DNA from: Moniliophthora roreri
Lineage: Eukaryota; Basidiomycota; Agaricomycetes; Agaricales; Marasmiaceae
Assembly (NCBI GenBank): GCA_001466705.2
Contig: LATX02000247.1
Coordinates: 1-64,000, forward strand
Length of the DNA: 64,000 nucleotides
Direction of reading: 5' to 3'
The notes under the pieces are model-generated. The model searched no databases, had not been told where the DNA came from, and worked only from the letters and a program-made list of their open reading frames with translations. Of this stretch, positions 21,934 through 26,427 are shown piece by piece (within the stretch, counting starts at the first letter, position 1; each line of letters opens with the position of its first letter). The position numbers were made by a program, and so were the translations under genes.

Positions 21934-21991
21934 TAGCCTCTGCAATGATGGGAAACGATGAATTCATCATTCCCTGCATTCACAGAGGCTA
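21934..21991. repeat. AGCCTCTG-type hairpin, copy 1
   Basis: The outer stem is TAGCCTCTG/CAGAGGCTA, then AATG/CATT, then GGGAA/TTCCC, and the centre is GATGAATTCATC. All pairs are complementary apart from short internal loops. Confidence 0.85.
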
Positions 21992-22106
21992 TGGGAGGTC
22001 GTGGTCGTGATGAGAAGGGCATTGGCGTTGGTCATTGGAAGTTGAGTGAGGATAGGGAGCGACGGTAGCTTCGCTGACGTTGACTTTGTGTTCTATGACC
22101 AAGAAA

Positions 22107-22130
22107 ACACCAGACTGAACAGTCTGGTGT
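22107..22130. repeat. Perfect 10-bp hairpin
   Basis: ACACCAGACT, loop GAAC, AGTCTGGTGT. A degraded relative (ACCAAAAAAACCACACACCG) occurs at about 22239-22260. Confidence 0.85.
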
Positions 22131-22634
22131 CTTTCCGTGATGTAGAATGTGGCAGAAAGTGGGGTAGGCAGGAGAGGTTGGCGGCCCAAAGATAGGAAAA
22201 ACATCGTCGCGAAGCTTCGGCGATGGCGGTGTCATGATCTGTGACCAAAAAAACCACACACCGACTTGTCTGTGATGGCGTTGGAGGCAAGAGCAACGTA
22301 CCTCTAGCCCTGTGCCTTCACTTCCATTTCCTTCGTTCTTCCTTCTCCATGGCTGATAGTATATACTCCTGTAGAATAGTGTTTAGTAAATAATAGTGAG
22401 AAATTGAAAAAAAAAAAACTTACCTAGAGTTGGTCGCAGTTACGGCGGTAGCGGTAAGAGGGAACGATGCGTTGTAACAACAGGTCACAATGCACCGAAC
22501 GTAATAGCAGTGTTCAAGAACATCCCGTGAGCATACGCAGATGTTCTCGAGGCTGCTGGAATCAATAGCGAGGTTAGCGGAAACGCTTGACCTTGCCATT
22601 GTGTCACGCAGCCTTCTCAATTCACAAACAATCC

Positions 22635-22693
22635 ATAGCCTCTGGCACTACGAGAACAGCGAATGCGCTGTTCTCTTTGTGTTCAGAGGCTAT
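22635..22693. repeat. AGCCTCTG-type hairpin, copy 2
   Basis: The outer stem is ATAGCCTCTG/CAGAGGCTAT (10 bp, perfect), the middle stem CAC/GTG, and the inner stem GAGAACAGCG/CGCTGTTCTC (10 bp, perfect) with loop AATG. The inner sequence is unrelated to copy 1. Confidence 0.88.
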
Positions 22694-22844
22694 AATCGAG
22701 GTGTGAATCGGGAAAGGTGGTGCCGAAAAGAGGGAGGCATTGCGAGCCTTCAAGAAATCTTGTCGACAATGGATGAGTTGCATGTGCACTTGAGCCTCAA
22801 CTCGAGCGCAATAATTATCCGTTGAGGGCAAATGAGTGTGTATG

Positions 22845-22870
22845 TGCACTCGAGCCTTAGCTCGAGTGCA
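22845..22870. repeat. Perfect 11-bp hairpin with a decayed tandem twin
   Basis: TGCACTCGAGC, loop CTTA, GCTCGAGTGCA. A tandem copy 60 bp upstream (22785-22810) has the same layout with two mismatches and one wobble. Confidence 0.85.
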
Positions 22871-23747
22871 ATATTCATCCGTCGATGTTGATTTCCGGGG
22901 TTGGTTGGCACTGGGGAAAAAAGTGGAGTCGATACGAAACGAGCGCCGGAGATTCTATTTGATTGCTTTAAGTTGCAGATGAGAGCATAGGGAAGGTCTA
23001 TAGATGCCGTAGAAAGAAAAGGAACGATCAGAATAGAGAAAATAACAAGAAAGTCGGGCACGCACCTGGAAACCTGCCTTCTTCCCTTCTCCTTCGTTCT
23101 TTCTCCCTCTAAGTGCGAGTAGATAGGCGATCTTCTTTAGTAAATCATATTACTTTAGTTTACTTTTCTTTAGAATGGATAGATGCTGGCGCAACGGCGA
23201 GGGACAGTTATCAACGATGGTGGTTCGAGATCGAGAGTAAGGCACAACGGAGACGATGATGCCTTTTGTTTGGTTGTTGTTGTTCCCGCAGGATTCGGCC
23301 TTTACGGCTCCGAGAGGCTGTGTTGATCGCAGCTTTTCTTTTCTCCTTACCATCACAACGTCGGTGAGGAAATACAAGACTTTGGAGGGAGAAAAGCTGA
23401 AGGAGAGGGCGGGAGAAAGGCAGAGGATAGAGTATTAAAGGTGTGTGCTCAATTCGTACTTTTTTTGGATTCTTCTAACGGTTTCTTTAGTTCTTACAGC
23501 CTTGTATCTTCTTCGGCGACGAATGCCCATTGCAATGGCACCCAAGTACTCAGAACCCGTCTCGCAAGCGTAGGACCCGCCTCACATCCAAGAACCCATC
23601 TCAAAGTGCATTACCCGCCTTACAAAACCCTACTCGCATCCACACCAATGCGGATCGACGCATACCATTGCACGTCGACGACGTACACCCACAGAGGCCA
23701 AACTTCCACCATTAGCACCTTCCCTAGCATGACCAAGGCCCTTCCCC

Positions 23748-23802
23748 AGCCTCTGAGTACGCACAGAATAACGTTTTCGTTGTTCATGTCGTTCCAGAGG
23801 CT
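23748..23802. repeat. AGCCTCTG-type hairpin, copy 3
   Basis: The outer stem is AGCCTCTG/CAGAGGCT. The inner stem is GAATAACG/CGTTGTTC (one wobble) with loop TTTT. The middle stem is imperfect here. Confidence 0.8.
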
Positions 23803-23878
23803 AGAGAAAGAGCTTCGAGTGCCGTAATATGCCAGGTACCAAGACGTCGTGCACCTCAGCTAAAACGCCCACGATGAA

Positions 23879-24006
23879 GGTGTCAGCCACTTGCGCTGAC
23901 ACCACCATCTTCTTCCCCGACGTTGAAAACCCTAGATTTTCGAATCTGGGACCTTCCGGCGCCGGCGTTACCTTCGAGAGGATGTGACTTTGTGTCACAT
24001 CCTCTC
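23879..24006. repeat. Run of three hairpins (module copy 1)
   Basis: In order: GGTGTCAGC/GCTGACACC (23879-23903); CCTAGATT/AATCTGGG (23931-23950, one wobble, loop TTCG); GAGAGGATGTGAC/GTCACATCCTCTC (23976-24006, 13 bp, perfect). They are followed by the TTACCACCACCACGGGCGG string and GGTGAG plus a T tract. Confidence 0.82.
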
Positions 24007-24685
24007 TTTCTCTCTTACCACCACCACGGGCGGCAACGAACTCGGAAGGTGAGTTTTTTTTCTTATACTTTTGTTCTTACAATTAATATTATTACTTAGG
24101 GATGTATACTGGCTACGAGAAGTGTGGAAGGAAGCAGGAGAAGGAGGGAGAACGGCTGTGGAGCAAGGAGGCAGGTACGTCGCCGACATTGGGATCTTTT
24201 TGTTCTACTGACTTGCTCATTGTGATTTACAGGTACCAGGACCGATTCTCCATCTCATCCGACGCTTATGCTACCCACCGCCGCCGTCGTTACCCTCGAA
24301 TTGCCGCCATTTCACGTAACGCCACTCCTGCCAAAGTCAACGGTTACAGCCCCATCCAACAACGCAGAAGCCAGCAGAAAGTTCACCTGGGGGGTTTCCA
24401 GTGTCCCTGAACACGGATATGATGTCGTTGAAGACTCGCGACATCGTCCTTGTATCGATCTCGACACCAGCACCACCCCTTCCTCCTACCCTTGCTTCCG
24501 GACTCAAAAATCAGCACCCGAACCCACCAGGATAACTCTCCTGGGGGTTTTTCGGGCCTCCGAATCCATTTCTGGCGTCAGCGGAATTCCCTGACGCCGT
24601 GTTTACGTCGTTCGGCGGGTGTCTACCACCCTTTCCTCCTCACTACCTTCCTTATCCATTTCCTATGCCATCCAAGTTCTCCTGC

Positions 24686-24740
24686 AGCCTCTGAGAACAG
24701 ATGCAATGACGAATTCGTCATTGCGGTCGTTCCAGAGGCT
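24686..24740. repeat. AGCCTCTG-type hairpin, copy 4
   Basis: The outer stem is AGCCTCTG/CAGAGGCT, the middle GAAC/GTTC, and the centre is a perfect 22-nt palindrome around GAATTC (24703-24724, arms GCAATGAC/GTCATTGC). Confidence 0.9.
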
Positions 24741-24816
24741 ATAGAGAGCCCCCTGGATCCCAACTTTGCAGCTTATGCCTAAAGCTGCAAAGTGGAGGCA
24801 ACGAGGGTGGATACGA

Positions 24817-24954
24817 GCACGATGGAGGCATCGTGCAGCTACGCCGACACCACCATCGTGTTCGGCGACCTCAAGAACCCCAGAATAGTGATTCTGGGGT
24901 TCTCGATGGCTTGCGTTATCATCGAGCAGGTGTGACATTGCGTGACACCTGCTC
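24817..24954. repeat. Run of three hairpins (module copy 2)
   Basis: In order: GCACGATG/CATCGTGC (24817-24836); AGAACCCCAGAAT/ATTCTGGGGTTCT (24874-24903, 13 bp, perfect, loop AGTG); GAGCAGGTGT/ACACCTGCTC (24924-24954). Just upstream a fourth stem, CTTTGCAGCTT/AAAGCTGCAAAG, lies at about 24765-24792. Confidence 0.85.
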
Positions 24955-25785
24955 TTTCTTCTTTACCACCACGACGGCAGCTGCGACTCGAGAAACGGTG
25001 AGTTTTTTTTTTTCTATTTTGATTTCTATCACTAACTACGTTATTCTGAACTATCTAGGAACTACAAGGGGTTCGGAAGGACTTGGAAGAAGGAGGGAGA
25101 GCGGCAGGGGAACAGGATTCAAGGTGCGTGCTAAAAATGACTTTTTTTTTTTGTTCTATTGACCTCTCGTTCTCTTTCTAGGTTACCTGGCCATATCTCC
25201 CACCTCTACAACGCCTACGCAGCCCGTCGTCGTCGCCGAAACGCTCGGAAAACCCGTCACTTCACGCAACGTCATTCCACCAAAGTCAACGAACGCAGCC
25301 ACATCCGACAGCGTAGAACCCACCAGGAAGACCTCCTAGGGGTTCTCCAACCCGCTGAACACATCTACGACGTCAGCGGAATACCCTGACCCGATCGTTC
25401 CCTCGAAATGGGCACCATCATCACCCTTTCCTCCTACCCCCGCTTCCGGTCCCAAACGGCAGCACCCGAACACGCCAGACAGTCCGCTCTGGCGTTTCTC
25501 ATGTCGCTGAATCCATTTACGACGTCAGCGGAATTCCCTGACCCCATCTCTACCTCGAACTCAACGGCATTATGAACCCCACCTCCTCGTACCCGCTTCC
25601 GAACTCCAAGGCCAGCACCCGAATACGCCGGACTGTCCGATATAGCGTAATTTGGGTCGCTGAGTCCATTTCCGGCATCAGCGGATTCCGCCGACCCCGT
25701 CGTTTGGTCGTTCGGTGGACTTTCACCGCCCTCGCCTCCTCGTTCCCCTTCCTACGGATTCTCCACTCCATCGATGAGCTCCTGC

Positions 25786-25840
25786 AGCCTCTGTGAACAC
25801 CGACAACGATGAATTCATCGTTGCCGTGGTTCCAGAGGCT
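25786..25840. repeat. AGCCTCTG-type hairpin, copy 5
   Basis: The outer stem is AGCCTCTG/CAGAGGCT, the middle GAAC/GTTC, and the centre CAACGATGAATTCATCGTTG (perfect). Confidence 0.9.
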
Positions 25841-25881
25841 ATAGACGGCCTTCTGGATGCAGCAGCTCTATCCAAAGCACC

Positions 25882-25908
25882 AAGTGGGCAATGGACCATT
25901 GCCCACTT
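25882..25908. repeat. Perfect 13-bp hairpin, 1-nt centre
   Basis: AAGTGGGCAATGG, A, CCATTGCCCACTT. It occupies the slot that in other modules carries the CTTTGCAGCTT stem. Confidence 0.9.
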
Positions 25909-26372
25909 TTTTACAAAACCTCGCCGGTGCCGCTCCCCTCTGAACCGTTCCCTCCCAAACTCATGTCCCACGTAGCTTAGGGTTATTAGNCCCGCCACCT
26001 CACATAGCTGGCCTTCCACCAAAGTCAACATCCCCAGCCCGAACCGAATACGCCAGAGCCTCCAGGAAAACTCTCCTGGGGGTTTTCCTACCCGCTGAAC
26101 ACGGATATGACGTCGCCGAAGACTCGCGACGTCGTCTTCACCTCGATTTCAACACCGACACCACCATCTCCTCGTACCCCCGCTTCCGGACTCAAACGCC
26201 AGCGCCCATATACGCCGAACAGTCCGTTCTGACGTATTTTGGGTCGCTGAATCCGTTTCTGACGTCAGCGGAACTCGCTGACCCCTCCTTTCTGTCGATC
26301 GGCGCATTCACAACACCATCTCCTCCTCGTTCCCCTTCTTACGCATTCTCCACCCCATCCATGAGCTCCTGC

Positions 26373-26427
26373 AGCCTCTGTGAACACATACAACGATGAA
26401 TTCATCGTTGCCGTGGTTCCAGAGGCT
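26373..26427. repeat. AGCCTCTG-type hairpin, copy 6
   Basis: Same stems as copy 5, with a changed internal loop. It is followed by CTTTGCAGCT/AGCTGCAAAG and GCACGATG/CATCGTGC stems. The module breaks off at the N at 26570, inside the next hairpin. Confidence 0.9.

What the first reader, a model, noticed from the sequence alone, without database searches (positions are those of the whole stretch)
21934..26427. Six-copy hairpin family with fixed outer arms and covarying inner stems
Copies at 21934, 22635, 23748, 24686, 25786 and 26373 all have AGCCTCTG/CAGAGGCT outer arms. The next stem is AATG/CATT, CAC/GTG, imperfect, or GAAC/GTTC (three times). The inner stem is GATGAATTCATC, GAGAACAGCG/CGCTGTTCTC, GAATAACG/CGTTGTTC, a 22-nt GAATTC palindrome, and CAACGATGAATTCATCGTTG (twice). 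Bases change but pairing stays. Random decay of a copied palindrome would break pairing, so either structure is selected (structured RNA, small-RNA precursor, extruded cruciform recognised by a protein) or templated repair keeps re-perfecting the arms. I know no named element with this layout.
Basis: partly seen in the sequence, partly recalled or inferred. Interest (0 to 1): 0.86.

Follow-up and report, generated by a model that had tools for sequence, protein, structure and literature searches.

The report
Covarying hairpin chain in fungal repeats
A fungal genome carries dozens of diverged copies of a one-kilobase, apparently non-coding repeat built as a chain of hairpins whose two arms change together, and this hairpin is its most conserved part; what keeps the arms paired is unsettled.

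Summary
All six hairpins exist and fold far better than shuffles (z -5.7 to -8.5). The genome (59.4 Mb, probably Moniliophthora) has 62 exact-arm copies. Each marks one end of a ~1 kb repeat unit found in tandem arrays and dispersed copies; one version rides in a hAT-like element with 8-bp target duplications. A unit holds six further hairpins with excess pairing, two putative introns, and no codon-constraint signal.

Covariation is strong by several measures: 13 of 21 pairs change on both sides; of 473,851 column pairs in 63 units, five of the top 11 lie in hairpins A and E. But a home-made tree null passed no pair, and R-scape was not run. The outer arms are the unit's two best conserved 8-mers.

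On the spliced strand G-U is not favoured over A-C (166 against 223 events), which argues against selection on that RNA alone. I lean to a spliced, structured non-coding RNA family; template switching in DNA is the main rival. Transcription and function are inferred only.

The parts
21935..21990 (-). hairpin A, copy 1 (56 nt, inverted orientation)
   Evidence: model R1 63.2 bits (R1 was built from these copies); fold z -5.69
22637..22691 (-). hairpin A, copy 2 (55 nt, inverted orientation)
   Evidence: 71 bits; fold z -7.26
23748..23802 (+). hairpin A, copy 3
   Evidence: 65.9 bits; fold z -7.92
24686..24740 (+). hairpin A, copy 4
   Evidence: 77.6 bits; fold z -8.51
25786..25840 (+). hairpin A, copy 5
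   Evidence: 75 bits; fold z -7.54
26373..26427 (+). hairpin A, copy 6
   Evidence: 77.1 bits; fold z -7.77
23726..24683 (+). repeat unit 1 (hairpin A to the next A), profile columns 9-977
   Evidence: nhmmer 823.9 bits, (the unit is in the profile)
24657..25783 (+). repeat unit 2, complete (profile 2-939 and 741-977; contains a partial internal duplication)
   Evidence: nhmmer 830.4 and 155.4 bits; a probe from this unit matched 64 places in the genome
25990..26371 (+). truncated unit 3 (profile 597-978); its start lies at a single N at 25990
   Evidence: nhmmer 327.7 bits; N position
26344..26569 (+). truncated unit 4 (profile 2-236); ends beside a single N at 26570
   Evidence: nhmmer 220.9 bits; N position
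21929..23126 (-). inverted, fragmentary units carrying hairpin A copies 1 and 2
   Evidence: nhmmer pieces 22016-21929, 22257-22060, 22694-22293 and 23126-22992
24763..24793 (+). hairpin B of unit 2 (not constant in the family)
   Evidence: fold z -4.92; mean z over 39 distinct family sequences only -1.6
24874..24903 (+). hairpin D of unit 2
   Evidence: fold z -6.10; pairing excess z 3.3 over the 63-unit alignment
24924..24954 (+). hairpin E of unit 2, with A the most strongly covarying stem
   Evidence: ranks 1, 2 and 8 of all column pairs; z 11.3; fold z -6.64
24049..24099 (+). putative intron 1 of unit 1 (GTGAGT ... TTAG)
   Evidence: sequence; conserved columns; no RNA evidence
24175..24232 (+). 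putative intron 2 of unit 1 (GTACGT ... CTACTGAC ... CAG)
   Evidence: sequence; conserved columns; no RNA evidence
24998..25058 (+). putative intron 1 of unit 2 (GTGAGT ... CTAAC ... TAG); its acceptor lies a few bases beyond the family's usual acceptor column, where this unit has TTCTGA
   Evidence: sequence; no RNA evidence
25124..25181 (+). putative intron 2 of unit 2 (GTGCGT ... CTATTGAC ... TAG)
   Evidence: sequence; conserved columns; no RNA evidence
51573..51918 (+). isolated fragment of a unit (profile 123-484: hairpins C-E, intron 1, next exon), no hairpin A
   Evidence: sequence, nhmmer 251.6 bits

Best explanation
The hairpin is the signature part of a family of ~1 kb non-coding transcription units that are spliced and fold into a chain of stem-loops. 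Shown: the unit and its copies, paired changes in several of its hairpins, conserved splice-like signals, no detectable codon constraint, and near-invariant outer arms of hairpin A. Inferred: that units are transcribed and spliced, that the stem-loops act as RNA (hairpin A, with its fixed base and length, being a site that a protein or an RNase-III-like enzyme could recognise), and that arrays with units in both orientations give transcripts of both strands, which could be why neither strand shows a clear G-U preference. Template switching during replication may help to keep the arms matched.
For: 66 oriented copies (60 distinct): 13 of 21 pairs change on both sides, 111 double-changed cells against 42.8 +- 4.9 in shuffles; partners slid by 1-3 columns fall to 31-43% paired. 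In 63 units (median identity 60%), five of the top 11 of 473,851 column pairs are stem pairs of E and A, and 32 of the top 300 are complementary pairs with at least two Watson-Crick types, against 2.0% of random pairs. Pairing exceeds shuffled partners in A-middle, A-inner, C, D, E, G, G2 and H (z 3.1 to 11.3; shuffles do not control for relatedness). Both-side changes per paired branch are 0.0146 against 0.0046 for the same columns re-paired at random. Majority-base frequency is 0.8-0.9 at GT, ACTAA/CTGAC and AG of the two putative introns, while other intron columns range from 0.3 to 0.9 and are high mainly in the T run. No period-3 pattern in 31 windows (lowest p 0.079) or in codon-position difference rates. 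The outer arms are the two best conserved 8-mers (0.997, 0.983; column mean 0.731). Hairpin density is 1.63 per kb in units and 0.26 per kb in the rest of the same loci. One automatic M. roreri gene model (P0123) reads across the intron-1 junction of unit C32_20457 exactly as if spliced there (my reading against the sequence).
Against: On the spliced strand, changes from a Watson-Crick pair to G-U number 166 and to A-C 223; selection on that RNA should favour G-U. Hairpin by hairpin the better-folding strand differs (A, C, D, G2 lean minus; E, B, G plus; H and H2 near even). My tree-based null gave scores up to 55.5 while the best observed pair had 45.0, so no pair passed it. One-sided change is common (567 one-sided against 104 two-sided per reconstruction). 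Six of the top 11 column pairs are not stem pairs. No expression data were available. No Rfam family reaches its threshold in the window.
Confidence: 0.42

Rival explanations
1. Pairing is kept at the DNA level: replication template switching copies one arm onto the other, so hairpins in the arrays are created and re-perfected by mutation, without selection for structure; only the A arms are held by sequence selection, for example as a protein-binding inverted repeat.
For: No preference for G-U over A-C on the spliced strand; one-sided changes in stems are only modestly rarer than in randomly re-paired columns (0.079 against 0.107) while two-sided changes are three times commoner; about 24 of 70 double changes are transversion-type with no G-U intermediate. 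The mechanism is described in PMC8794818 (abstract and opening of the text seen).
Against: Double changes cluster in one stem and branch only weakly (15.1 against 9.3 +- 3.5). It does not by itself explain near-invariant outer arms, near-constant hairpin length (51 of 66 copies 55 nt, the rest 54 or 56) or conserved splice-like signals, nor why hairpins are about six times denser in units than in the rest of the same loci.
Confidence: 0.33
2. The units are the remains of a non-autonomous mobile element or satellite whose fold-back parts served transposition, with no present function.
For: Many copies, tandem and dispersed; one version sits inside a hAT-like element with TAGGGGTGCC termini and 8-bp target duplications at four of four loci examined; a stretch of up to ~250 nt on each side of A is weakly inverted-repeat-like.
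Against: Exact hAT termini occur only in those 4 of the held loci, and I recognised no constant termini for the unit elsewhere (its ends vary; target duplications were not searched for outside the four). Conservation is uneven and peaks at the A arms, unlike free decay. The long flanking arms score hardly better within a unit than between units (32.9 against 30.9).
Confidence: 0.18
3. The units are genes or decayed genes for a protein family; M. roreri databases list hypothetical proteins there.
For: M. roreri hypothetical proteins match unit reading frames (3 proteins, best 80% identity over 91%, from one of these: 5 proteins including the query, all M. roreri). One frame through hairpin A is open in most 55-nt copies.
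Against: No excess of change at one codon position in any of 31 windows. In four frames tested, third positions do not change clearly faster than the others; the largest lead is 0.174 against 0.165 and 0.167, in hairpin A. 54- and 56-nt copies shift the frame and some copies have stops. No Pfam match in the three frames from the array that were tried.
Confidence: 0.05

Closest known systems
Fungal mi/milRNA hairpin loci (re-analysis PMC9757828: abstract, outline and passages seen)
   Same: Short RNA hairpins; [quoted passage not shown]
   Different: No small-RNA reads were available here. The main text of that paper has no occurrence of Moniliophthora, 'tandem' or 'covari' (word search).
Structural RNAs of fungi found by covariation (PMC8216456: abstract and outline seen)
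   Same: Non-coding candidates found through covarying pairs in fungal genomes.
   Different: By its abstract those are snoRNA, intergenic, intron and UTR structures in five other fungi; this is a multicopy family compared within one genome.
Template-switch-made hairpins (PMC8794818: abstract and opening seen)
   Same: Explains perfect stems and multi-base compensatory changes by one mutation event.
   Different: Described there for RNA genes; here the outer arms and splice-like signals are conserved as sequence, and clustering of double changes is weak.
Repetitive hairpin-forming elements of sponge mitochondrial genomes (PMC2800124: title and start of abstract in a search listing)
   Same: Repeated hairpins spread through a genome.
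   Different: Those are mitochondrial; this family lies on many large contigs (up to 2.3 Mb), has putative introns, and one version lies in a hAT-like element.
hAT-type non-autonomous transposons carrying captured sequence (recalled, no paper read)
   Same: Four copies have TAGGGGTGCC termini and 8-bp target duplications.
   Different: Only that sub-family; no such exact ends occur in the other held loci.

Membership tests
miRNA-like / hairpin small-RNA precursor | a stable single hairpin | tested here: met
   six of six window copies, z -5.69 to -8.51
miRNA-like / hairpin small-RNA precursor | precise small-RNA reads from one arm, Dicer dependence | not testable with these tools
   no read data held
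Structured non-coding RNA | covarying base pairs above a phylogenetic null | tested here: inconclusive
   strong by shuffles, ranking and event counts; no pair passed the home-made tree null; R-scape not run
Structured non-coding RNA | G-U tolerated more than A-C on the transcribed strand | tested here: not met
   166 against 223 events over all stems; hairpin E alone 27 against 22. Raw counts lean the other way: E 42 against 26, A 52 against 42 by hand
Known Rfam family | match at gathering score | tested here: not met
   0 matches in the whole window; best weak match in 21-27 kb 29.2 bits against a cut-off of 80
hAT-like non-autonomous element | terminal inverted repeats and 8-bp target duplication | tested here: met
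   for the C68, C100, C118 and C145 copies only, four of four; the other held loci lack the exact termini
Protein-coding gene family | slower change at first and second codon positions | tested here: not met
Template-switch-maintained hairpins | multi-base compensatory changes in one event | tested here: inconclusive
   15.1 clustered double changes against 9.3 +- 3.5

The most novel reading that the evidence does not exclude
A lineage-specific class of multicopy, spliced, non-coding RNA genes, each a chain of about seven stem-loops, whose hallmark is a 55-nt hairpin with an almost invariant 8-bp base and a covarying upper stem, read from both strands and processed by, or bound to, a protein that recognises that base.
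Probability: 0.25. Interest if true: 0.8.

Novelty: new variant of a known kind. Interest (0 to 1): 0.58.

Why it matters
Dozens of diverged copies in one genome make this a natural experiment on how hairpins stay paired: selection on RNA, selection on DNA, or template-switch mutation. The covariation is strong by several measures but lacks the strand signature expected of RNA, so the family is a test case for the common assumption that compensatory change proves a functional RNA. If transcribed, it would be a family of spliced structured RNAs that I found no name for and that databases list in part as hypothetical proteins.

Tried and rejected
Tree-based covariation null: 20 null alignments made by scattering Fitch substitutions over a FastTree tree reached 55.5, above the best observed 45.0; no pair at E <= 1. 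I suspect this null is harsh (it puts many changes on deep branches), but it stands as a negative result, and R-scape was not run.

RNAalifold on windows of the unit alignment gave no structure for most windows; I then found stems as runs of complementary columns and counted on named stems. Some of the runs show no excess over independence and I did not use them.

Long flanking arms: nhmmer showed unit columns 20-260 resembling the reverse complement of about 780-980, suggesting a 500-nt palindrome. Arm scores within a unit hardly exceed those between units (32.9 against 30.9; mononucleotide-shuffled 23.6; 61 of 65 oriented copies with enough flank), so I read it as old inverted homology, not kept pairing.

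Strand tests disagree. Counted by hand over the pairs (66 copies), G-U 52 against A-C 42; for 42 distinct hairpins E, 42 against 26; events on the tree over all stems, 166 against 223. I report no clear strand preference.

With the hairpin model the viral ones score 33.5 bits at most, against 45.9 or more on the better strand for the 66 copies from which the model was built; I take them as chance. None of the 80 prokaryote loci listed was examined. Other fungal genomes could not be searched as DNA. Protein searches with unit reading frames found only M. roreri entries. The telomere repeat TTAGGG x4 (recalled) has no match in the assembly, so a telomere link was not tested. Literature searches; I saw no such element in the listed titles and abstract openings, nor in passages of two M. 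roreri genome papers (PMC10468315, PMC3948071; no occurrence of 'hairpin' in either main text). Most subscription papers are not in that library.
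Full report
What is there. The window is C146:1-64000 of a 59,427,881-base, 154-contig assembly. It is a basidiomycete, probably Moniliophthora: the multicopper-oxidase frame at 60396-61121 is 82% identical over 67% of its length to a M. perniciosa protein, an open frame in the array is 80% identical to a M. roreri hypothetical protein, and published M. roreri assemblies have 56.8-59.6 Mb (PMC10468315, passage). The species was not proved. 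All six hairpins are real and fold far better than dinucleotide shuffles (z -5.69 to -8.51). They are directional: after the first 8-bp arm there is usually one unpaired base on one side, so copies 1 and 2 are inverted relative to copies 3-6.

The family. The pattern AGCCTCTG-N28-50-CAGAGGCT occurs 62 times in the genome, against 0 for the reversed control (not all places were printed). In the stretches I could fetch I collected 66 copies with up to two arm mismatches, 59 of them exact, 51 of them 55 nt long, 11 of 56 and 4 of 54 (lengths 53-57 were allowed). Two further loci were fetched because the unit body matched: one (C152) has exact arms, the other (C34) one mismatch. A covariance model built from the 66 copies and run over 30 held loci added two degenerate places (L013 about 1250-1300, L019 5716-5780) and one doubtful 17-bit match; the rest are the same copies on both strands.

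The unit. A 1047-base probe between two hairpins matched 64 places. A profile of 21 units gives a ~1 kb unit: hairpin A; a place where some copies have hairpin B; C; D; E; a conserved CTCTTTCT..TTACCACCA; a putative intron; a short exon with GGAGGGAGA; a second putative intron; an exon with hairpins G, G2 and H and a less constant H2; then the next A. Units stand in tandem on C32, C83, C103, C139, C146, C152 and others, in both orientations, and as fragments, one at 51573-51918 of this window without hairpin A. Several arrays lie near contig ends (C73, C114, C139, C103), as expected where repeats break an assembly. Four copies 93-95% alike over ~1 kb (C68 against C145, C100 and C118) sit inside a hAT-like element with TAGGGGTGCC/GGCACCCCTA ends and 8-bp target duplications in four of four; a probe of it matched 34 places, many partial.

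Is pairing kept? On 66 copies (60 distinct), 91.0% of cells pair against 84.1 +- 0.5 in shuffles; 13 of 21 pairs have both-side changes; 111 double-changed cells against 42.8 +- 4.9; slid partners drop to 31-43%. The outer arms add nothing here, being invariant and chosen by the search pattern. A test not aimed at any hairpin used 161 profile matches, of which the 63 covering at least 300 columns were kept (none dropped as duplicate; median identity 60%). Of 473,851 column pairs, ranks 1, 2 and 8 are pairs of hairpin E and ranks 4 and 11 pairs of hairpin A; the other six of the top 11 fail the complementarity criterion and probably reflect relatedness; 32 of the top 300 meet it, not all of them in a named stem, against 2.0% of random pairs. 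With partners shuffled, pairing is in excess in A-middle, A-inner, C, D, E, G, G2 and H (z 6.1, 10.7, 3.3, 3.3, 11.3, 3.1, 5.5, 4.6) and not in A-outer, which hardly varies; these shuffles do not control for relatedness. On the tree, both-side changes are three times commoner than for the same columns re-paired at random, 0.0146 against 0.0046. Against this, a tree-based null passed no pair.

Which molecule? If the spliced strand were selected as RNA, single changes should prefer G-U to A-C. They do not: 166 against 223 events (E alone 27 against 22; A-inner 17 against 34). As a rough baseline, over all columns outside the few pairs named (other stems included) the two kinds of change are even (C>T plus A>G 2147, G>A plus T>C 2131). 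Raw mismatch counts lean slightly to G-U (52 against 42 for A by hand; 42 against 26 for E). Folding energies favour plus for some hairpins and minus for others. About 24 of 70 double changes cannot pass through G-U, and double changes cluster only weakly in one stem and branch. So either both strands matter, or DNA-level template switching keeps the arms matched (PMC8794818, abstract and opening seen), or both.

Is it a gene? GT, ACTAA/CTGAC and AG columns of both putative introns have majority-base frequencies of 0.8-0.9, other intron columns 0.3-0.9, high mainly in the T run. One automatic M. roreri gene model (P0123) reads across the intron-1 junction of unit C32_20457 as if spliced exactly there (my reading); P0122 looks as if intron 2 were removed, which I did not check base by base. 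Yet no window of the unit shows codon periodicity (31 windows, lowest p 0.079), and difference rates by codon position are about flat in four frames. I therefore take the hypothetical proteins as probable mis-annotations of a non-coding, possibly spliced unit. Expression was not testable.

What stands out. The two outer arms of A are the best conserved 8-mers of all 977 columns (0.997 and 0.983, mean 0.731). About 43 of 63 rows cover them (from the cell counts) and most loci were fetched through the arms, so this is partly biased, though both units fetched by their bodies also have them (one with one mismatch). Hairpins of arm 9 or more occur at 1.63 per kb in units, 0.26 per kb elsewhere in the same loci and 0.04 per kb in mononucleotide-shuffled unit sequence.

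Verdict. The hairpin family is real and genome-wide, its arms change together, and I did not find it described in the searches made. I lean to a structured, spliced non-coding family (0.42), with template switching (0.33) and dead mobile or satellite DNA (0.18) behind it.

Noticed in passing
window 25990 and 26570: Single N bases sit where homology to other arrays breaks, so the order of the array pieces there may be an assembly join. Further single N at 1318 and 21091.
   Followed up: partly
window 20539-21005 and 26571-27835: Repeats flanking the array are 99.6-99.8% identical to stretches of contig C32, far closer than most units are to each other: recent duplication around old arrays.
   Followed up: no
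window 29562-32044, 37124-37819, 39782-41922: Copies of one related coding region (KLPFSTVPDRYDFTIKHSDCFG...) lie in both orientations; no Pfam match for the one frame tested, 30671-32044.
   Followed up: no
window 21546-21863: Short repeats and a hairpin with 13-bp perfect arms (21768-21802) just upstream of the array, similar to stretches in C32 and C139.
   Followed up: no
L020, L021, L029, L031: hAT-like element that carries a copy of the unit, with 8-bp target duplications.
   Followed up: yes
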